DNA of 64,000 nt. It comes from Blumeriella jaapii (Eukaryota > Ascomycota > Leotiomycetes > Helotiales > Drepanopezizaceae). Both the position numbers and the translations under genes were made by a program. The notes beneath the pieces are model-generated. The model ran no database searches, was not told the DNA's origin, and saw nothing but the letters and a program-made list of their open reading frames with translations. Below, one piece after another: positions 2,140 to 35,705 of the stretch. How positions within the stretch are numbered: the stretch's first letter is position 1; each line of letters opens with the position of its first letter. Location: the NCBI GenBank assembly GCA_009599575.1, contig VWND01000009.1, positions 930,001 through 994,000 on the forward strand, written 5' to 3'.

Positions 2140-5100
2140 ATGTCGGGATGGCTGAAGAAGTTTTTGGGCTTGGCTGTTTTGCCTGCCCTGGTCCACCCAT
2201 TTGCTCCGACGGACTCGACACAGGATGCCGTACGTATTTCCTTCCAGTAAGGAGGAAACCGAGGCATGCATTTAACAATCAACAGGACCCTCCCCAGTCA
2301 GGCTACCTCCCTAATCACAACATGGACCCGACTCTCGTTGCTACGTCCCTTGCCGTGGCGTGGAAGGCAACGTTTAATGCCAACGAGGTTTTCTACGCCA
2401 AACCATTGGTGTACACCCCACCAGGAGCACCGAACGAATATGTCATTACGGTGTCTAATCAGAACATTGTTCGTGTTCACGATGGGTTGACCGGCAACTT
2501 GATCAAGTCGAGGACGCTGGATCCGCCGTTTGCTGCATCAGATGCTAGTTGTGGGGACATGCCGAACACGATTGGTATATCTGGGACGCCCATCATTGAC
2601 ACCGCTACAGACACCATGTACTTTTTCTCCAAGGGGTATAAGAACGGTTAGTTGGTCCATCTGGACCTGATAAGCGAAGGCGTGGCTTACGATTCGGCAG
2701 CGCAGGCAGGGCCGCAGGGACCGATCAATGGTTGTAATTCCAGGACTGGATGTATGGCGACGGCTGACCGGGTTACAGGCGTATATAAAATGTATGCCGT
2801 GAATCTTCCGACACTTGCCGATGTCACTGGCTTCCCAGTTGTCATCGATGGACACTACGCTGCGAACGATCCTACAAGGTAAGCTCTCAGTTCATGTGTC
2901 CTCGCATGTCTGACTAACTCGGCATCAGATATTTTTTGGGGGGTACAGTCCTTCAGAGACCCGGTCTAGCCATGCTCGGCAACACGATCGTGTAAGTCAA
3001 ACGCTTCGTTCAGGATATCTGCTTACGAGGCGTGCTAGAGCCGGATTTGGTGGCCACTGTGACAACTTCAACTACACTGGGATGCTAGTCGCTGTCAGCA
3101 AGACAGCTGGAGTCGGTGTTACCAACATACAAGCTATGCAAGCCAGTCCTGGTACATCTTCTGCGATTTGACTTGAATGCGCGCATTGACTTCCCTAGGG
3201 GCTCAATCACCACAGGCTCTCGATATTAACGTCCAAGGGGGTGGTAAAGCTGGAATCTGGCAAGGTGGCATGGTGGGTTGACTTGCTGCGGGCTTGATAG
3301 AGCCGAAGTTAATGTTCCGGCAGGGAATTGCTGCTGATGTCAATCGGGTATTCTTCATCACTGGGTGGGTCTCACTCCAATGTACTTCAATGCCTGGCAC
3401 TCACGATCTCGCAGGAACGGTCGTGGAGCCGGCCAGAATGGAGGGGCCAATGGAAAGGCAGCCAGTGGTAAGGTATATTTGAGCACTCTGGAGCAAGCGG
3501 TGGTCAACATGGGGGTGAACCCGGGTACCGGTGAACTGAAGCAGCAAGACTACTTCGAGTCGTATGCGTATGACAGTAACAACGGAGGCGACACGGACTT
3601 TGGCTCAGGTGGCTGTGCTCTACTCGACCCAGGGACCTTCTACGGAACAGGCATTGCCAGAATCGCAGTGGGTGCAGGAAAGGACGCCAAATTGTTCATC
3701 ATGAATGCCGACGACCTAGGTGGATTCGCTGGCGGAAAAGCCGGAGCCGACAACGTCCTGCAGGTAATCAACGTAGGCGCCCCCGTGCTAAGCGGCTTAG
3801 GAAGCTACCCCCTGGAAGGAGGATATATCTACATCAACCCATCTGGAGACAGTCTGTACGCCTACAAGTTCAGCCGTGACGGCAATGGGAAGCCAGTCTT
3901 TACCCAAGCTGGAAAGTCCGCACGTGTTTTCTCCGGCAAATCGGTACCGACAGTCACCAGCAACAATGGACTGGTTGGGACTGGCATTGTTTGGTTGGTA
4001 GACATCAACTGGGGTCTTCAAGCCTACAATGCCGTGCCGGTGAATGGTGTCTTGACCCCAATCACGCTTCCATCTGGTGCTGCCACAGGGAGCCTGACCA
4101 AGTTTCAACGTGCTGTATTCGGAGACGGTCGAGTCTACACGGTGCGCAGCAGTGCGCTGGTGATGCTGGCTGGAGGAGGCAAAATGGCAAACCAACCGCT
4201 GACTTGCACGCCTAATCCGGTTGCCTTTGGCTCTGTCATGACTGGCCAGACCTCTACTCTTTCTGTTACATGTCTTGCAAATACCGCTGTTACAAACGCA
4301 AGATGCAACATTACCTCGCCCATCTTCAAATGCCCAACCACTGCTCTGCCGGCAAGTGTGGCTTCTGGTGCATCCTTCACGTTCGGACTGGTAAGTGCAT
4401 CCTCTGAAACGGACAGTAGGGTCTGACTTCAATAGACGTTCGATTTGACTTCCGCAACAACTCTCGCTTGGCAGAATGCGAATGGTGGAAATCAACTTGC
4501 TCCTGGTACGCAAGCTGGGAATCTGAATATCTACACCACCACAATCACGCCTGGATACCTGCCCGGCGTTGTCGTTCCACTCTCCGGTACGATCGTCGCC
4601 TCGGGAGGATACCTCACCGTCAACCAAACAGTAGCCTCATTGAGTGGAGTGTTTGTCGGCGATCAGTCAACTAAATCGGTCCTCTTGTCCAACCTAGGTA
4701 GCAAGGCTTTATCTTTTACTGGTTTTGCGTGGCAAGATTACTACGCCGGGGGGATGCCCTATCACAATGTGAGCTTACCAACCGTTGGCAACAGCTTCTC
4801 CTCGACATCATTCCCTGCTGTGGGTGCTACTATAGCTGGCGGTGGCACAATGGTCATCCCTTTAGCGTTCAAGCCTACTGCGACTGGAATCTTCGCCTCG
4901 TACCTCACGTGGTGGAGTGATGGAGGATATACTACTCTGCTCATGCAGGGTATCGCCCAGCAAGGCTCATCCTCCTCGTCGTCCGCTACCACTTCGTTGT
5001 CTACTATGAAAACTTTTAGCACCATAGTAGCCACAAGCATTTTGATCTCAAGCTCAGTCAGCAAACAGCCATCCGGTCCAAGCTCGAGCGTGTCTTCAAG

Positions 5101-7537
5101 CCCTAGCTCGACTAAACCTCAGCCAAGCTCTCCAACCAAGGCAACAGTAGCACCTACTCAAACTGGACCAATTGCTCCACCGAACGTCGAAGGCTACACG
5201 TACAAAGGGTGCTGGACCGAATCGACGACTGGTAGAGCTTTGAACATGAAAAGCCATTCCGATGATGCCATGACCCTCAAGATGTGTGCTTCTTTCTGTT
5301 CGGCGGTGCCGTCGTATATTATGTTTGGGGTCGAATATGGTCGCGAGTGTAAGTCTGGCTGGTGTTGTCCTATTCGAAGCTGATCCGTACAGGCTACTGC
5401 GGTGATGTTCTGCGTGCTGGAAGTGTGGCAGCTCCTGAAACCGACTGTACATTCCTGTGTCCTGGGAACGCACTGGAATACTGTGGAGCTGGGAAGAGGC
5501 TACAACTTTACGCTCTTGGTGTTGCTCCAACTTTAGCGACGGTTTCCAAAGCCAGCTCGAGCGCCGCAATTTTCTCGACGTCAACCAAACCTTCAGTATC
5601 GAATGCTACGAGCTCACCATCAACGTCATCAGCCTTGCCTTATATCAAGCCTCCAAATTCCGTCCAGAGAGCCTACACATGGAGCATTGGCTGGGTGCGG
5701 GCATCTCCGGATGGGTTCTCGCGGCCCATGATCGGTATCAATGGACAATTTCCTTGTCCTCCGCTAATCGCGAACATGGGCGACACCTTTAAGATAACCG
5801 TGACGAACAACCTTGGAAATCAGAGCACTGCTATCCACTTTCATGGTATCTTCCAAACGAACACAACGTTCTCGGACGGACCAGCAATGGTCACACAGTG
5901 TCCCATCCAGCCGGGTGCTTCCTTCGTGTACGAATTTACAGTGAACCAGCCTGGCACGTACTGGTATCATGCTCATATTGGAGTAAGATTGATGCTGATC
6001 CCAGCCATCCCCAAACATCTGTTTGGAAGACATTGACCAATGCAGGGTCAATATCTCGACGGTCTTCGTGGTCCGCTTCTCATCGAGGATGTCAATGCGC
6101 CGTATCGCGGTATCGACACCGAACACATTCTGACGCTTAGTGATCTGTATCATACAGAGGCACCACCGCTCATCAATTACTACCAGTCCCGGGACAACGC
6201 CAACAACAACAATGGTGCAGAACCCGTCCCTAACTCTGGTCTGATCAACGAGAGCCAGAACGGTAGATTCAAGATGCGTCCGGGAAAGAAGTATCTCTTC
6301 CGGATCATCAACATGGGGGCCTTTGCGCCATTTTATCTGCAGTTCGATCAGCACGACATGACTGTTGTTGAGATTGATGGTGTCTACACGAAGCAGGTTC
6401 CTGTCAGCCAGCTCTTCATCACGGTCGCGCAGCGTTATAGTGTCATCGTCACGGCCAAGACCGACAGCAGCATGAATTTCGCCGTGAAGGCGTCGATGAA
6501 CACCGACATGTTCAACCCGACTGTCATCCCGGCGACTTTCAACACAGAGGTAATCTCATGCATCGTGTATGGTCCGACACTAACGGATTCAGGTCTCGGC
6601 ATACCTTGTTTACGATGATGCTGCCCCCCTTCCAGGCCCTCTTACCATCAAGCCTGCGCCGTTTGACGATTCGGTCTTCACTCCCTACGACGAACAAGCA
6701 GCTCTGTCTCCGGTGACGATGCCAATCCAGTTGACTGTCTCCTTCGGTGCCAATCAGAATGGCCAGTGGCGCGGCTACTTCAATGGGATCGATTACGTTC
6801 CCCAAAAGGTGCCCACGCTGTACACGGCCATGAACGCCCCTCTCGCGAACATCAACACGCCTTCCATCTATGGTGCGAACTCGAATCCCTACGTTCTTCC
6901 CATGGGCGCGGTGGTCGAAGTCACGATTCAGAACCACGATGCCGTCGCCCACCCTTTTCACCTGCACGGACACAATTTCCAGGTCATATCCCGAAGCGCG
7001 GGCAGCTCCAACTTCCCCATCAGCATCCCAGCCGGAGCGCCGATGCGTCGTGATACGGTCCAGGTCATGTCCGACGGGAGCGCCACGATTCGATTCGTGG
7101 CCGACAACCCGGGTATCGCTCTTTTGCATTGCCACATTGAATTTCACGTCGAGGCTGGTTTGACGGCGACCTTTATCGAGGCGCCGACTGAGCTGCAGGC
7201 GAAGCGGCTCTACCTACCCGTGAGTCACCGGAGTGTATGTGACGAGCAACGGATCCCCAGAAAAGGGAACGCGGCGGGCAACTCGGCGAACTATTTGGAT
7301 CTGACGGGCGCGAACACGGTGGCTGACACGGCGTCGTGGGGGCGAGTCATCTTTTCGTGCCATGTTTACCAGAAGACTGACGATGCCGCAGAGCTCTGGT
7401 CGTCAAGCCCGCCGTCGCAGCGTCGGCCTTCCCACTCGATTGAGCCGATTGTGGGCACGGATTCTTGGGAATTGGGTTTCCAAGCACAAGATGCTCTCAG
7501 CGGGGGTGGGGGGGAGGGGGGGCATAAGGTTGGCTGA
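2140..7537 (+). CDS. Secreted tri-domain oxidase: beta-propeller/PQQ-like + WSC + multicopper oxidase
   Basis: Twelve exons fit: 2140-2229, 2286-2646, 2701-2878, 2929-2991, 3039-3151, 3199-3272, 3324-3364, 3415-4390, 4436-5348, 5393-5982, 6046-6549 and 6593-7537, giving 1,616 codons. The start was chosen because it gives a signal peptide (MSGWLKKFLGLAVLPALVHP). Residues about 30-570 resemble fungal quinoprotein-like beta-propellers (NGVYKMYAV, GTGIARIAVGAGKDAK). About 570-820 look like Ig/ASPM-type repeats, followed by a Ser/Thr-rich linker. A WSC domain spans about 882-978 (GYTYKGCW, GRECYCG, LEYCGAGKRLQLY), then a second Ser/Thr linker. About 1018-1615 is a full multicopper oxidase with all four copper motifs: HFHG, WYHAHIG, HPFHLHGH and HCHIEFH followed by Leu at the axial position. 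WSC domains bind polysaccharide; laccase-like oxidases oxidise phenols or metals. The second intron may instead end at 2778, giving a shorter loop. The C-terminal tail runs into a G-rich tract and is the least certain part. Confidence 0.85.
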
Positions 7538-8428: not shown

Positions 8429-8489
8429 GGGATGCCGTGACGGGATGCCGTGACGGGATGCCGTGACGGGATGCCATGACGGGATGCCC
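8429..8489 (+). repeat. 13-bp tandem array (GGGATGCCGTGAC)
   Basis: Four to five head-to-tail copies of GGGATGCCGTGAC. The fourth copy carries one change (CCATGAC). The array runs directly into the 14-bp array that follows. Confidence 0.85.
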
Positions 8490-8498
8490 TTACAAGAT

Positions 8499-8990
8499 GC
8501 CTCATACGGGATATCTTATACAGGATATCTTACACAGGATATCTTATACAGGAAACCTTATACAGGAAACCTTATACAGGATACCTTATACAGGATACCT
8601 CATTCGGGATATCTCATACAGTACACCTCATACAGTGCTGTACTGTACATACAGATTACCTCATACAGGATACCTTATACAGGATACCTCAAACAGTACA
8701 CCTCATACAGTACACCTCATACAGTAGTACACCTCATACAGTGCTGTACTGTACATACAGGATGCCTCATACGGGATATCTTATACGGAATATCTTATAC
8801 GGGATATCTTATACGGGATATCTTATACGGGATATCTTATACGGGATATCTTATACAGGATACCTTATACAGGATACCTCATGGATGCCTCATACAGGAT
8901 ACCTCACACAGTACATCTCATACAGTACACCCCACGCAGTACATCCCACACAGTACACCCCACACCGTACACCTCACACCGTATTCCCCC
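8499..8990 (+). repeat. 14-bp minisatellite (CTTATACAGGATAT family)
   Basis: About 30 tandem units of a 14-bp sequence. Variants are interleaved in blocks: CTTATACAGGATAT, CTTATACAGGAAAC, CTCATACAGTACAC and CTTATACGGGATAT. Some units become TACAGTAC, linking this array to the TACTGTACAGTA motif seen throughout the window. Homogeneous blocks, such as the run of ACGGGATATCTTAT units near 8770-8850, suggest recent local amplification. Confidence 0.85.
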
Positions 8991-9403
8991 ACACACAGCA
9001 CTGTCCTGTACCCTACTGACAATGCATATTTCGGCCAATCTCCTTCCTTCCCTGCTGCATTTAAGGAGCAACCCTCTTCTTTCTCGCTTCTTTCTCGCTT
9101 CTTTATTTCTCGCTTCTTTATTTCTCGCTTCTTTCTCGCTTCTTTCCGTCTTGCCACCACGACGGTACGGGACTGTTGGGTACTGGACCGTCCTTGACTC
9201 TACTACTGCACCACCACTTTTCTCTCCCTGTGCTCTTCTTCCTCCCAACTAGCCTCGTCGACCTCTTCCTCCTCCTCCTCCTCTCCTCCTCCTCCTCTTC
9301 TTCTTCTTCTCTCCTCCTCTTCTTCTTCCTCTTCTTCCTCTTCTCCCCTCCCCCTCCCCCTCCCCCCCCCTCCCTCTCCCCCTCCTCTTCTTTCTGGCAA
9401 AAC

Positions 9404-25285: not shown

Positions 25286-27675
25286 CTACTTTGCAAAGTG
25301 CAAATCAAAGCCCAGCCACTTCCTGGCGTTCACTTGCGCTGCGTCGAGGCCTGGGTACCCATACGTGAGAGGCAGGAACCAGTACCAGCTTCCAACAACG
25401 AGCGTAAGAATGACGCCGACCGCTGCCCAGGACACCACGAGGTTCTGGCCGGCAACCTTCTCGCGCGCGGGGATGTGCTTCTTGGCTGATTCCTTCTTGG
25501 CTGAGGCCGTATCGAGGACCGGCTCTCCACTACAGACGAATTCGAGAAGGGCTCCTGTCACCAAGGCCGAGGCCAGATGTGCGGGCAGGTAGTGGTGGAG
25601 GAAAAGTTGCCGACCCATGACATAGAAGGGAAGATAGTGTGTAGCCCAGGCAATGAAGAAAAATCCGGTTGAGTTGTAGAGACGAGATCGAGTACCTGTA
25701 CACGTTAATTGAGAAATCAACCGGTGATCATGACTCACGTAGATCCAACGCATCCACACCACGGCGAAGAGACAGCTGGTCAGCGGCAATGATACCGACG
25801 TACACAGCCAGGAGACTGCTCGCTATCCACCAACCAAGGGGGTTTCCAATGAAGTAGATTTGCTGACGGGAATCATTGTGTGTCCAGAAGCTAACACCAC
25901 GCAACAAGAAGGGCCAGATGAAAGGCTCGCTGGCGTAGGGATGGCTACCGGTCAAGGCGTTGTTGTGGTAGAACATGGCTCTCTGCAACTCGAACCATTT
26001 CCTGAAGAACGAAAGGCTCTTGACCTTCCGCTCTTCCTTGACCAATCGCGGGTCGCCGGCGGCGATGGAAGGGATCGAGTCAACATACCAGATGTTGGAG
26101 CTCTGAGCCAGGTTCTTGTTGCCGTTGATCTCTTGTTGCTTGTAAGCCCAGTCTGGGAGCGGGGTGTTGTGAGTCCACATGGCAACCTTGCTCGGGTGGT
26201 GAATGAGCTTGAATAGTCCAGAGAGGCTCTTGAGCTCCTGGAGGGTTTTCCCACTCTCAATGCGGATTTCAAAAATAGTGTCGTTGTAGCGCTCGCCTAG
26301 AGCATCCTCCATGGAGACCGTGGTGAACTCCTGATTTGTTGGGTAGTATGGGGAAGCAACATCGTGAGATAGAAGCATGGTGTTGGTAACCACATGTCTA
26401 AGTCTGACACGGTCGTTGTTTCTCACGACCCTTCCAAGCTCCTCGTTGTTGTGAAGAGGGAGAATTTCCCAGTGGTTGTTGGCATCGGAGAATGGGTAGC
26501 CGGTGACTTGCTGACCTTGACTCGAAACTCGGCCATCCTCGTATCTGAGAGGATACTTGTCCGGGTGACTGTGGAGGAAGCTGTGGGTCTCCTTGTGCTT
26601 GATCTGAATGTGATCCATGTAGTTGACGGTGACCGCTTGGGAAGACATGAGGTTTTCGCTGAGAGTCTCTTGAAACTCGGGCGACATGAAATCGTCACCT
26701 GGACCAGATCGAGTCAGAATCGCGAAATGGACCTGGAACCAGAAGAGGTAGAAGAAGAATGGCACGACGATAAGAGCAAATGCTCGGGCAACGAAATGTT
26801 TCCCGAATTCTGGCAGGCTGAGAGCTCCTTGGCGGCGGTTGGCGTTCAGCAAATCCCAGAGGTCAATTGCCACTGCGGCGCCAATGGTCACGAACGAAAA
26901 GGTTCCCACGTATTTGATCGACATGATGCAGCTGAGAGAAAATCCGGTCAGAAGCAGCCACTTCCACCACTTGCGCCCGAACGGTTCATGTCGGAGCTTG
27001 TAAAACTTGACGTAGCACAGAAGACTGCACGCCATGGCGAAGATGAGTCCCGCATCCAGAAGGATAAGTCGAGTTTGTCCAATGTGTGCATTGTCAAAGA
27101 GGACTAGGCAGGCAGAGAGGATGCAAGCTGGCAGGGTGTAGCCGGATTCCCACATGATGGCGAAAACCACCGGGACCGTCAGAGCCCCAAGGAGAGCTGG
27201 CATAGCACGGTAAGCCACGTATGGGACCTTGTTGTCGACATAGGAATCGCCAATGTTCTCGAAATGGAAGTGTCCATCGTAGCCCACGAACCAGCCCATC
27301 AAGGCGAACAAAAGCTTTCCTAGGGGAGGGTGGACATCGAAGAAATAGGTTCGCTCGAGGTAGTACGAGGCGAACTGTGGTTGTTAGAAGATAGACCAAC
27401 GTTGGGTTGCGGAGCCGAACCTTGCCAAAATGCACCTCATCAAAGACGACCTCGTTCGGATGGCTGATGCCCCAGAATCTCGTCACGAACGCCAGTACCG
27501 TGATAATTGCAATCGCCATTCTGTAGTCCCACTCGGCCCGGGGTCGCTTCTTTGCCAGCTTGGCCTTGATCAAGGAGTCGAGATCGGAGTCTGCGATGCC
27601 AATCGAGACGGCATCTTTTGCTTTCGGCGTCACAGAAACATCTTTGCGCTTCCGCACCGAGCCTTGGCCCGTCAT
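25286..27675 (-). CDS. PMT4: Dolichyl-phosphate-mannose protein O-mannosyltransferase, PMT4 type
   Basis: Minus-strand exons 27421-27675, 25739-27374 and 25286-25695 give 766 residues. It transfers the first mannose from dolichyl-phosphate mannose to Ser/Thr of secretory and membrane proteins in the ER membrane. Visible features are VVFDEVHFGK joined across intron 1 to [20 protein letters not shown], which is the first lumenal loop with the conserved Asp-Glu pair. Then come VGYDGHFHFENIGDSYVDN, multiple hydrophobic helices, and three MIR-type segments between about residues 320 and 520 (THSFLHSHPDKYPLRY, RLRHVVTNTMLLSHD). The C-terminal helices include THYLPFYVMGRQLFLHHYLP. FENIGDSY and the FASYYLE loop fit PMT4 rather than PMT1 or PMT2. 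All expected parts are present. Its paralogue PMT2 lies about 5.6 kb away. Confidence 0.9.
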
Positions 27676-33271: not shown

Positions 33272-35705
33272 ATGGCTTCAGAAAAGGCTGTTATTGCGTC
33301 TGGCCTCGACGCCGAGATTCAAGCAGCCCGCAAGCGCAATGTGCCCTCTAACGCTTCCAACGGAGGGCTGGTGGATCGAATCGAGGTCGATGACAAGAAG
33401 ATGCAGAAGAAAAAGGTGCGCAGCTCTGCCGTGGATCGACCTTCTCAGCAGCTGATCTCGTCTCTAGCCCGAGCAGACGCTTCTGCAATTCCTGGACGAA
33501 TGGGAATTCATTATTGCGCCTGTCATCTTCACACTCCTGGCCTTCCACACACGCCTGTACAAAATCGGTCTGTCGCCCATTGTGACATGGGACGAAGCCC
33601 AGTACGAAGCTCCCCCTTCCCCAATCCACACAATCGCCGTTACTGACCCGTTTCTAGTTTTGGCAAATTCGGATCCCACTACCTCAAACGAGAGTTCTAC
33701 TTTGATGTCCACCCTCCTCTCGGAAAAATGCTGGTTGGACTGTCCGGATACATGGCCGGCTACAATGGATCCTTCGAGTTCAAGTCTGGCGAGGTATACC
33801 CCGACGAGCTCAACTATACCTTCATGCGCGCATTCAATGCCTTTTTTGGGGCTGTCTGTGTCCCATTGGCTTACTTCACTGCCCGTGAGATGGATTTCAA
33901 GCGTCCTGCGGTCTGGTTCGTCACGCTCATGGTCCTTTGCGAGAACTCGTACACCACGATCAGCAGGTTCATCCTCCTCGATTCCATGCTGCTGTGTTTC
34001 ACCTTTACAACCGTTTTGTGTTGGGCAAGGTTTCACCGACTCCAAAATCAAAGCTTCAGCGCCGAGTGGTTTGTGTGGCTCGTCTTGACTGGCATTAGCA
34101 TTGGACTCGTGGACAGCGTCAAGTGGGTTGGGTTCTTCGTTACTGCTATGGTCGGACTTTACACCATTGAAGATCTCTGGAGCAAGTTTGGTGATGTCAA
34201 GATGCCCAAGGTAAGATTCGCCAAGACTTTTCTGTTGACTTGCTGACCTCCCTTAGGTCGACCTTGCTACCCATGTTGTTGCCCGAGTGGTTGGCCTGAT
34301 CGTTGTTCCACTCGGTATCTACATGCTGTCTTTCGCCCTTCACTTCGCCATTCTCGAGAATAGCGGCCCCGGAGATGCTCAGATGAGCTCCTTGTTCCAG
34401 GCCAATCTCCGAGGAACCGAGGTTGGAAAGGACAGCCCTCTAGAGATCGCGTACGGCTCCCGGGCCACGATCAAGAACATGGGCTATGGCGGTGGTCTTC
34501 TCCATTCTCACGTCCAGACTTACCCCGAAGGCTCAAACCAACAGCAAATCACTTGCTACCACCACAAAGATGCCAACAACGAGTGGTGGTTCTACCCCAA
34601 TCGTTACCAGCCTGACTTCGATCCCAATGCCGACCTCAAATACGTTGCCGATGGCGATGTTCTGCGTCTCATCCACTCTCAAACTGGTCGCAACCTCCAT
34701 TCTCACGAGGTCTCGGCTCCCATCACCAAAGCCGACCGTGAAGTTTCGTGTTACGGAAACACCACTGTAGGCGACGAGAAGGATCACTGGACCATGGAGG
34801 TGGTCAAGGATGTCGGCTCAGGCGACAAGAGCAAGATCCGAACCTTGACGACCGCGTTCAGGCTTAAGCACACCGCTCTCGGCTGCTATCTTCGCGCTGG
34901 TAACGTCAACCTGCCTCAGTGGGGTTTCAAGCAAATCGAGGTGACCTGTGACAAGGCCAACAACCCCCGAGATGTTTACACTCACTGGAACGTCGAGGCC
35001 CATTGGAACGAGAAGCGTTAGTACTCTGTCCCATTCTCTTCACACGACTAACCAACTGCAGTCCCTGCCGCCGATGCTGGAGCTTACAAGTCTCCTTTCC
35101 TCCAGGACTTCATTCACTTGAACGTTGCCATGATGACCTCGAACAACGCCCTTGTTCCCGATCCGGATAAGCAAGATGATCTGGCTTCTGCTTTCTGGCA
35201 GTGGCCCATTCTCAACGTTGGACTCCGCATGTGTGGCTGGGATGACCACATCGTCAAGTACTTCCTTCTGGGAAACCCCCTCGTCTACTGGGGCTCGACC
35301 GCATCCCTTGGGTTTATCGGTCTCATGGTCCTCTGGTACCTCGTCCGATGGCAGCGCGGCTACAAGGAGCTGATGCAATGGGACCTGGACCAAATCCACT
35401 ACGCCGGTCTCTATCCTGTCCTCGGATGGTTCCTCCATTACATCCCCTTCGTGTCCATGGGCCGCGTGACCTACGTTCACCACTACTACCCTGCGCTCTA
35501 CTTCGCCCTTCTCGCCTTTGGCTTCGTCACGGACTGGATGCTGCGAAGCAAGGGGAGAACGGTGCAGATTGCCGCCTACGGCATTCTGTACACCTTGACC
35601 ATCAGCCTCTACATCTACTTCATGCCCATCTCGTGGGGAATGGTCGGACCGAACCGGGACTACCGCTACCTCAAATGGTTCGACACATGGAAAGTCACGG
35701 ACTAG
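33272..35705 (+). CDS. PMT2: Dolichyl-phosphate-mannose protein O-mannosyltransferase, PMT2 type
   Basis: Exons 33272-33415, 33468-33601, 33658-34210, 34257-35016 and 35062-35705 give 744 residues. It is an ER-membrane enzyme that adds O-linked mannose to secretory proteins; in yeast Pmt2 works as a heterodimer with Pmt1. Splicing creates the loop-1 motif [20 protein letters not shown] followed by [12 protein letters not shown], carrying the essential Asp-Glu. Next are [20 protein letters not shown], several hydrophobic helices, and MIR segments ([52 protein letters not shown]). The C-terminal membrane part contains [20 protein letters not shown] and ends near [23 protein letters not shown] and the MIR arrangement place it in the PMT2 subfamily. 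Nothing is missing. It is divergently oriented from PMT4 with two unrelated genes between them. Confidence 0.93.

What the first reader, a model, noticed from the sequence alone, without database searches (positions are those of the whole stretch)
2140..7537. A 1,615-residue secreted protein fusing beta-propeller, Ig-like, WSC and full multicopper oxidase domains
The sequence shows one signal peptide at 2140. An open exon (4436-5348) continues from the Ig-like repeats into the WSC domain. A second open exon (5393-5982) continues from the WSC domain into the first cupredoxin. No promoter, stop or start lies between them. All four copper motifs are intact. Family knowledge: propeller-plus-WSC proteins and stand-alone laccases exist in fungi, and WSC domains bind wall or plant polysaccharides. 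A laccase chained to a wall-binding module and to a quinoprotein-like propeller is, to my knowledge, unusual. It suggests an oxidase tethered to a polymer surface, possibly with a second redox or binding site.
Basis: partly seen in the sequence, partly recalled or inferred. Interest (0 to 1): 0.88.

Follow-up and report, generated by a model that had tools for sequence, protein, structure and literature searches.

The report
Wall-binding propeller fused to copper oxidase
A fungus carries one gene for a secreted protein that joins a bacterial-enzyme-like propeller, a cell-wall-binding module and a copper oxidase related to the yeast iron oxidase Fet3; other fungi carry the same or a shorter fusion, so the pairing looks like an evolved unit, possibly an enzyme that oxidises a substrate with oxygen at the wall surface.

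Summary
The fusion is real; the gene model and the word "laccase" need correcting. Order: leader, 8-bladed propeller, ASH/PapD-like Ig, Ser/Thr linker, WSC, Ser/Thr linker, multicopper oxidase. Ten of 120 listed long relatives have propeller and oxidase in one model; five of the ten lack WSC, so propeller plus oxidase is the constant pair. The oxidase is Fet3-derived (389 bits; best laccase 273) but altered: Glu185 and Asp409 kept, Tyr354 to Arg, Asp283 lost, no membrane anchor, not beside FTR1. The propeller has the fold of bacterial PQQ dehydrogenases (and of BamB) and resembles the former by profile, though subsets weaken this: two of five site residues align in 60 of 60 resamplings, three in 20-32. 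Best reading: a wall-tethered O2-reducing oxidase with a quinoprotein-type partner. PQQ use is untested; if real, it would be a second eukaryotic PQQ family. Seven aimed searches of a partial library listed no described case.

The parts
2140..7443 (+). whole coding region, 14 exons: 2140-2229, 2286-2646, 2701-2730, 2779-2878, 2929-2991, 3039-3151, 3199-3272, 3324-3364, 3415-4390, 4436-5348, 5393-5982, 6046-6549, 6593-7341, 7392-7443; 1,551 residues
   Evidence: splice model colinear with P0001 (1,552 aa) from end to end
2140..2205 (+). signal peptide (about residues 1-22)
   Evidence: hydrophobic leader MSGWLKKFLGLAVLPALVHPFA by eye; 77% identical in P0001; no predictor run
2286..4177 (+). propeller domain, residues 31-545 (with introns)
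   Evidence: model of relative P0244 (pLDDT 91.2); quinoprotein fold; profile match to PQQ dehydrogenases
   Evidence: its removal restores the INGVYKMYA reading of relatives
3061..3063 (+). D223, candidate counterpart of the metal ligand Glu177 of methanol dehydrogenase
   Evidence: pairing exact in only 21 of 60 resampled alignments
3258..3260 (+). W273, candidate counterpart of Trp243 (PQQ stacking)
   Evidence: exact in 32 of 60 resamplings
3416..3418 (+). N292, counterpart of the metal ligand Asn261
   Evidence: exact in 60 of 60 resamplings
3596..3598 (+). D352, candidate counterpart of catalytic Asp303
   Evidence: exact in 20 of 60, shifted by 2 in 12, unaligned in 28
3680..3682 (+). 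K380, counterpart of Arg331
   Evidence: exact in 60 of 60 resamplings
4178..4966 (+). Ig region, residues 546-793; the second half is an ASH/PapD-like (HYDIN-type) sandwich
   Evidence: human HYDIN 2e6j, TM-score by target 0.77
4967..5185 (+). Ser/Thr-rich linker 1 (residues 794-866, 49% S+T)
5195..5517 (+). WSC domain (residues 870-962, eight Cys), across intron 5349-5392
   Evidence: PF01822, 69.3 bits, cut-off 27.8; cysteines
5518..5646 (+). Ser/Thr-rich linker 2 (residues 963-1005, about 45% S+T)
   Evidence: residues 963-1004
5668..7440 (+). multicopper oxidase, three cupredoxin domains (residues 1013-1551), Fet3-derived
5836..5847 (+). copper motif 1 HFHG
5968..5976 (+). copper motif 2 HAH
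6220..6222 (+). E1176 = Fet3p Glu185 (kept)
6938..6940 (+). D1401 = Fet3p Asp409 (kept)
6950..6973 (+). copper motif 3 HPFHLHGH
7127..7147 (+). copper motif 4 HCHIEFH
   Evidence: its removal gives the C-terminus shared with P0001

Best explanation
A single secreted, wall-associated redox protein. Shown: one continuous reading frame joins a propeller of the 8-bladed quinoprotein fold, an ASH/PapD-like Ig domain, a WSC module and a complete multicopper oxidase; the propeller-oxidase pair recurs in other fungi, and the oxidase belongs to an anchor-free class derived from Fet3. Inferred: the oxidase oxidises Fe(II) and/or phenols with O2; Ser/Thr-rich (probably O-mannosylated) linkers and, where present, the WSC module hold it at a polysaccharide surface. 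Inferred more weakly: the propeller is a quinoprotein-type dehydrogenase or substrate-binding partner, so that electrons taken from a sugar, alcohol or quinol reach O2 through the oxidase, directly or by an Fe(III)/Fe(II) or quinone shuttle. My step-by-step estimates: single fused protein 0.93; oxidase active 0.9; wall or polysaccharide tethering through WSC 0.6; propeller redox-active with PQQ 0.25-0.3.
For: Colinear orthologue and 10 of 120 listed long relatives with propeller and oxidase in one model. All 30 fused, truncated or split oxidases in a 66-row tree group with one stand-alone metagenome protein at SH-aLRT 100, and one clade for the 30 is not rejected (p-AU 0.548). Fet3p is the best-scoring solved structure. 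Glu185 and Asp409 are kept in 11 of 11 fused rows. C-terminal hydropathy maximum at most 1.32 in 11 of 11 fused rows against 1.88-2.67 in 10 of 10 canonical-group rows examined. Propeller fold and profile similarity to PQQ dehydrogenases (reversed and shuffled controls).
Against: No transcript, protein or activity data. Tyr354 is Arg in 11 of 11 fused rows and Asp283 is kept in only 3 of 11, so efficient ferroxidase action is not assured; the review also notes a strong ferroxidase (Cryptococcus Mco6) with none of the four residues, so they are no sure guide. In the propeller the vicinal Cys pair, Glu55 and Arg109 of PQQ dehydrogenases are not kept; three of five site pairings are unstable on resampling, and the profile probability has a median of 37.6 (range 0.7-95.8) in subsets. 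By VIA-align, designed propellers, YxaL, Rv3035, tetrathionate hydrolase and BamB reach higher Z than the best PQQ enzyme, though over fewer residues. A profile search of PDB sequences with alignment A1 listed no PQQ enzyme. Fungi are reported not to make PQQ (PMC6881810, passage). Long linkers argue against fixed close contact for direct electron transfer. WSC binding is not universal: none was seen for FgrAldOx and CgrAldOx (PMC13094651, passages).
Confidence: 0.5

Rival explanations
1. The propeller is a non-catalytic binding scaffold (as BamB is) that, with WSC and Ig, places the oxidase on a polymer; only the oxidase is an enzyme, working as a secreted laccase/ferroxidase in wall or lignin chemistry.
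For: Among the 120 listed long relatives most with this propeller carry no oxidase, and 35 of 40 such proteins aligned have Val at the column of metal ligand Glu177, so the fold is used without a complete PQQ site elsewhere; BamB is a close fold match; several PQQ contacts are lost.
Against: Across the 112 aligned propellers Trp (109), Asn (107), Asp (111) and Lys (102, plus 2 Arg) are nearly invariant at the other four columns, and the metal-ligand column is Asp in 15 of 16 fused or split rows examined, more than a scaffold seems to need.
Confidence: 0.35
2. The oxidase makes pigment: a wall-tethered enzyme of the Abr1/brown1 kind that polymerises phenols (melanin), the propeller binding precursor or polymer.
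For: Two members of the fused clade (P0130, P0131) carry the source name conidial pigment biosynthesis oxidase Abr1/brown 1; anchor-free Fet3-derived enzymes including Abr1 are described as a suggested class in PMC3129051 (passages).
Against: The names are as the source wrote them and probably automatic. Abr1 keeps only Glu185 according to that review, whereas here Glu185 and Asp409 are both kept. Nine ORFs of this window that were scanned gave no pigment-gene domain (not an exhaustive annotation).
Confidence: 0.15
3. The fusion is an artefact of reading two neighbouring genes as one.
For: Several records hold the parts as separate models; no transcript was available.
Against: In the four species with both halves the separate oxidase models start in Ser/Thr linker, WSC or at the oxidase and lack a leader; the window has no room for a promoter, stop and start between the parts; ten one-piece models exist, seven from named species and three from metagenome sources.
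Confidence: 0.04

Closest known systems
Fet3-type ferroxidase (CAZy AA1_2; Fet3p, PDB 1zpu)
   Same: best-scoring solved structure (389 bits), copper motifs, Glu185 and Asp409 kept
   Different: Tyr354 is Arg, Asp283 lost, no C-terminal membrane anchor, not beside FTR1, fused to a propeller
Anchor-free Fet3-derived oxidases (ChMCO1, Abr1) as described in PMC3129051 (passages)
   Same: no C-terminal anchor, derived from ferroxidases
   Different: keeps Glu185 and Asp409 together (that review: none of the four in ChMCO1, only Glu185 in Abr1); carries propeller and WSC
Fungal propeller-Ig-(WSC)n proteins without an oxidase
   Same: same N-terminal order; one paralogue lies in this genome at C3:421514-422967, followed by WSC matches
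   Different: no oxidase; 35 of 40 aligned have Val where 15 of 16 fused or split rows have Asp at the metal-ligand column
Bacterial PQQ-dependent alcohol/methanol dehydrogenases
   Different: lacks the vicinal Cys pair, Glu55 and Arg109 counterparts; PQQ binding untested
AA5 copper radical oxidases with N-terminal WSC modules (PMC3620520, PMC13094651, passages)
   Same: a secreted fungal oxidase hung on WSC modules
   Different: unrelated catalytic domain; no propeller-Ig module of this kind
AA12 PQQ dehydrogenases of fungi (PMC6881810, passages)
   Same: fungal quinoprotein idea
   Different: resemble bacterial soluble glucose dehydrogenase, not the alcohol-dehydrogenase propeller; no multicopper oxidase is mentioned in that paper

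Membership tests
Multicopper oxidase (three-domain) | three cupredoxin domains with the four His/Cys copper motifs | tested here: met
Fet3-type ferroxidase (AA1_2) | closer to Fet3p than to laccases | tested here: met
   389.3 against 273.5 bits. The tree places it apart from the canonical Fet3 group; no solved laccase was in that tree
Fet3-type ferroxidase (AA1_2) | Glu185 and Asp409 | tested here: met
   both kept in 11 of 11 fused rows and 19 of 19 truncated or split rows
Fet3-type ferroxidase (AA1_2) | Asp283 | tested here: not met
   Asn in the window protein; Asp in 3 of 11 fused rows
Fet3-type ferroxidase (AA1_2) | Tyr354 (less critical according to PMC3129051) | tested here: not met
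   Arg in 11 of 11 fused rows
Fet3-type ferroxidase (AA1_2) | C-terminal membrane anchor | tested here: not met
   hydropathy maximum of the last 90 residues at most 1.32 in 11 of 11 fused rows; 1.88-2.67 in 10 of 10 rows of the canonical group examined
Fet3-FTR1 iron uptake pair | FTR1 permease gene beside it | tested here: not met
   the three FTR1 matches found all lie at C9:771707-772672, next to another Fet3-like gene (C9:768978-770718), about 160 kb away
Fet3-type ferroxidase (AA1_2) | oxidises Fe(II) | not testable with these tools
   needs an enzyme assay
WSC domain | Pfam PF01822 above cut-off, eight Cys | tested here: met
WSC domain | binds wall polysaccharide | not testable with these tools
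   reported for some WSC proteins and not seen for others (passages)
PQQ-dependent dehydrogenase (8-bladed) | quinoprotein fold over the whole domain | tested here: met
   on relative P0244, which is 58% identical to the window propeller; the fold is shared with cofactor-free proteins
PQQ-dependent dehydrogenase (8-bladed) | sequence-profile homology | tested here: met
   probability 94.0, score 67.7; reversed 15.8, best of 20 shuffles 22.1. But 60 subsets give median probability 37.6, and no Pfam cut-off is reached
PQQ-dependent dehydrogenase (8-bladed) | Asn261 and Arg/Lys331 | tested here: met
   N292 and K380, aligned in 60 of 60 resamplings
PQQ-dependent dehydrogenase (8-bladed) | Glu177, Trp243 and Asp303 | tested here: inconclusive
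   D223, W273 and D352 conserved but paired exactly in 21, 32 and 20 of 60 resamplings
PQQ-dependent dehydrogenase (8-bladed) | vicinal Cys pair, Glu55 and Arg109 (residue roles recalled) | tested here: not met
   single Cys119; Tyr/Leu/His/Asn at Glu55; Thr/Met/Ser/Leu at Arg109 in the 16 fused or split rows
PQQ-dependent dehydrogenase (8-bladed) | PQQ bound, dehydrogenase activity | not testable with these tools
   needs protein

The most novel reading that the evidence does not exclude
The propeller is an active 8-bladed PQQ-type dehydrogenase, the second eukaryotic PQQ family after AA12, covalently paired with a Fet3-derived multicopper oxidase: a self-contained extracellular electron chain that oxidises a substrate at one end and reduces O2 to water at the other, without releasing H2O2, on a wall surface.
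Probability: 0.22. Interest if true: 0.87.

Novelty: new variant of a known kind. Interest (0 to 1): 0.62.

Why it matters
Fungal extracellular redox enzymes are usually studied one domain at a time, and database models often cut this fusion into a nameless propeller and a "cupredoxin". A repeated propeller-oxidase pairing suggests that the two work together, which gives the large family of uncharacterised fungal propeller-Ig-WSC proteins a first functional lead. If the propeller uses PQQ it would add a second eukaryotic PQQ family and a natural model of a dehydrogenase wired to an O2-reducing copper enzyme, of interest for wall chemistry, lignin redox cycling and enzyme electrodes.

Tried and rejected
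Laccase sensu stricto was considered and dropped: Fet3p scores far better. A role as the FTR1 partner in iron uptake was dropped: the FTR1 found sits beside another Fet3-like gene. Finding the propeller by single-sequence search in Pfam, NCBIfam or PDB sequences failed (one search tested relatives, not the window protein); of ten relatives scanned only sub-threshold PQQ_2 or ACSF4-propeller hits appeared, and a PQQ_2 search of the own genome did not list this propeller. A PDB search with the mixed alignment A1 was filled with oxidase, WSC and Ig matches and listed no PQQ enzyme among 51. One origin for the propellers of all 18 fused and split rows is rejected (p-AU 0.0016), but three of the seven split propellers (P0244, P0246, P0262) were assigned by me without a matching contig, and the search that found the oxidase-free propellers in that tree held only proteins up to about 990 residues, so some may be truncated halves; I therefore draw no conclusion about loss of the oxidase. 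The 'split' oxidase label (19 rows) was set by me from the first residues before the tree was built; some of these are fragments that start inside the oxidase. In one search two of the 18 fused or split propellers (P0262, P0284) were dropped by a length filter, leaving 16. Two of the 11 PQQ enzymes were trimmed of their first 140 residues (membrane part). Rhexocercosporidium has a stand-alone oxidase and a stand-alone propeller with the same longest-contig length (P0149, P0341; 2.4 Mb), too large to call them neighbours. Rfam found nothing in the window. DNA of fungal relatives was not sought: genome contigs is described as bacterial and archaeal and metagenome scans were capped at zero, so splice sites and split models were not checked on DNA. 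In some searches only the candidates sharing most words were scored and only the best 120 were listed (of 391, 3,164 and 160); one search printed the parts of 160 of the 240 proteins (P0161-P0240 not printed). Queries were the uncorrected reading or parts of it.

Papers: passages read in PMC3620520, PMC8400822, PMC3129051, PMC13094651, PMC7902709, PMC6881810 and PMC6909477; the other papers were seen in search listings only. Seven searches aimed at such a fusion listed no paper that describes a propeller-multicopper-oxidase or WSC-ferroxidase fusion by title or start of abstract; they cover only the held open-licence library, one search listed 10 of 26 papers, and most listed papers were not opened. 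The other three searches were about residues, WSC binding and AA12.


Full report
Observation. The window lies in a 47.4 Mb genome of 91 contigs (G000:C9:930001-994000), a fungus by its introns and relatives (inference). Comparison with the closest relative, a 1,552-residue Drepanopeziza brunnea protein (P0001), exposed two further introns. One (2731-2778) is 48 nt, in frame and free of stops, so it could pass for coding. The other (7342-7391) has a GC donor, a branch-like ACTGAC and an AG acceptor; removing it gives the ending WGALVVKPAVAASAFPLD, matching WGALVVKPPSAAPAYPLN in P0001. The corrected model has 14 exons, 2140-7443, 1,551 residues, and aligns with P0001 from first to last residue. 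Identity to P0001 is 90% in the propeller, 84% in the Ig region, 78% in WSC, 86% in the oxidase, and 58% and 55% in the two linkers.

Architecture. On the uncorrected reading Pfam finds WSC (E 3.4e-19) and three Cu-oxidase domains, a sub-threshold HYDIN-type Ig domain and nothing for the propeller. The Ig exon models as a beta sandwich (mean pLDDT 71.6 over exon and linker, above 90 in most of the sandwich) whose best matches are ASH/PapD-like domains, including human HYDIN. The two Ser/Thr-rich linkers are 49% and 45% Ser+Thr. No hydropathy window near the C-terminus exceeds 1.25.

The fusion is shared. Of 391 long relatives of the WSC-oxidase part, 120 were listed. Searching those 120 for the four parts finds propeller and oxidase together in 10: four with propeller-Ig-WSC-oxidase (P0001-P0004: Drepanopeziza, Cadophora, Rhynchosporium, Acephala; the last with two WSC copies), five with propeller-linker-oxidase and neither WSC nor Ig (P0005, P0006, P0007, P0010, P0011), and one with a weak WSC (P0009). 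The constant pair is therefore propeller plus oxidase. In a search for stand-alone oxidases (3,164 hits, 120 listed) many near relatives begin inside a Ser/Thr linker, a WSC or the propeller. Four species (Leptodontidium, Acephala, Thozetella, Stipitochalara) have a matching propeller model with an identical longest-contig length (P0121/P0241, P0136/P0247, P0132/P0284, P0148/P0252). I read these as gene models cut in two; the DNA could not be checked. P0006 has an odd, Ser/Thr-poor linker (22%) that may be read-through of an intron.

The oxidase. Fet3p (1zpu) is the best of 178 PDB sequences matched (389.3 bits; best laccase 273.5). Of the residues that make Fet3p a ferroxidase, Glu185 and Asp409 are kept in all 11 fused rows and all 19 truncated or split rows; Tyr354 is Arg in all 11 fused rows; Asp283 is Asp in only 3 of 11. 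A review states that Glu185, Asp283 and Asp409 are decisive and Tyr354 less so, and that Phanerochaete Mco1, with the counterparts of Glu185 and Asp409, has the stronger ferroxidase activity; but it also names Cryptococcus Mco6, a strong ferroxidase with none of them (PMC3129051, passages). In a tree of 66 oxidases, all 30 fused or split rows group with one stand-alone metagenome protein (SH-aLRT 100); next to them lie six stand-alone Arg354 enzymes, and canonical Fet3 proteins with Fet3p lie apart (midpoint root). Holding the 30 together gives a slightly better tree (p-AU 0.548). The last 90 residues have a hydropathy maximum of 1.88-2.67 in ten of ten canonical-group rows examined, at most 1.32 in 11 fused and at most 1.38 in ten stand-alone Arg354-type rows. 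The only FTR1 place found in the genome lies beside another Fet3-like gene about 160 kb away. So this is an anchor-free, Fet3-derived oxidase that is not the iron-uptake partner.

Mechanism. Shown: the fused reading frame, the copper motifs, the class of the oxidase, the fold of the propeller, the recurrence of the pair. Inferred: secretion, O-mannosylated linkers, WSC-mediated attachment. WSC binding to chitin or laminarin is reported for some oxidases and was not seen for FgrAldOx and CgrAldOx (PMC13094651, passages). Most speculative: electron flow from a propeller substrate to O2. A Fe(III)/Fe(II) or quinone shuttle fits the long linkers better than a fixed contact. Fungi are said not to make PQQ, and AA12 was called the first and only known eukaryotic PQQ family in 2019 (PMC6881810, passage); a PQQ-using propeller here would be a second.

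Evolution. In a careful tree of 34 propellers the fused and split ones are interleaved with oxidase-free ones, and one clade for them is rejected (p-AU 0.0016). Because several of those oxidase-free proteins may be truncated models, this does not settle whether the oxidase was lost or the fusion arose more than once.

Verdict. A real, conserved domain combination for which seven aimed searches of a partial library listed no description: a new variant of known kinds, with an open and testable chance of a new eukaryotic PQQ enzyme.

Noticed in passing
own genome C9:768978-772672 (loci L020, L029): A Fet3-like gene on the minus strand lies about 1 kb from the only FTR1 place found in the genome, on the plus strand: the ordinary divergent iron-uptake pair, on the same contig as the fusion gene.
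   Followed up: partly
own genome C3:417920-422967: A paralogous propeller (39% identical) followed in the same direction by four WSC matches in one long open frame; no oxidase match was listed there: the common propeller-Ig-WSC type.
   Followed up: partly
window 25731-27383 (-) and 34257-35018 (+): Two stretches with protein O-mannosyltransferase-type domains (PMT with MIR; MIR alone) within 10 kb of each other; such enzymes would glycosylate Ser/Thr-rich linkers like those here.
   Followed up: no
window 8429-8995: Tandem repeats, chiefly about 30 copies of a 14-base unit (TACAGGATACCTCA and variants, 8491-8925), downstream of the gene; long open frames there are repeat-driven.
   Followed up: no
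P0257, P0273, P0277, P0281, P0287, P0297: Metagenome propeller proteins named 'iron transport multicopper oxidase' although no oxidase was found in them; the name may have leaked from fused relatives. P0249, a stand-alone propeller, is named glyoxal oxidase in UniRef.
   Followed up: no
P0012, P0022, P0025, P0030: Fungal proteins with two multicopper oxidase units in one model (Coemansia, Gymnopilus, Pyrrhoderma, Psilocybe); may be real tandems or fused neighbouring genes.
   Followed up: no
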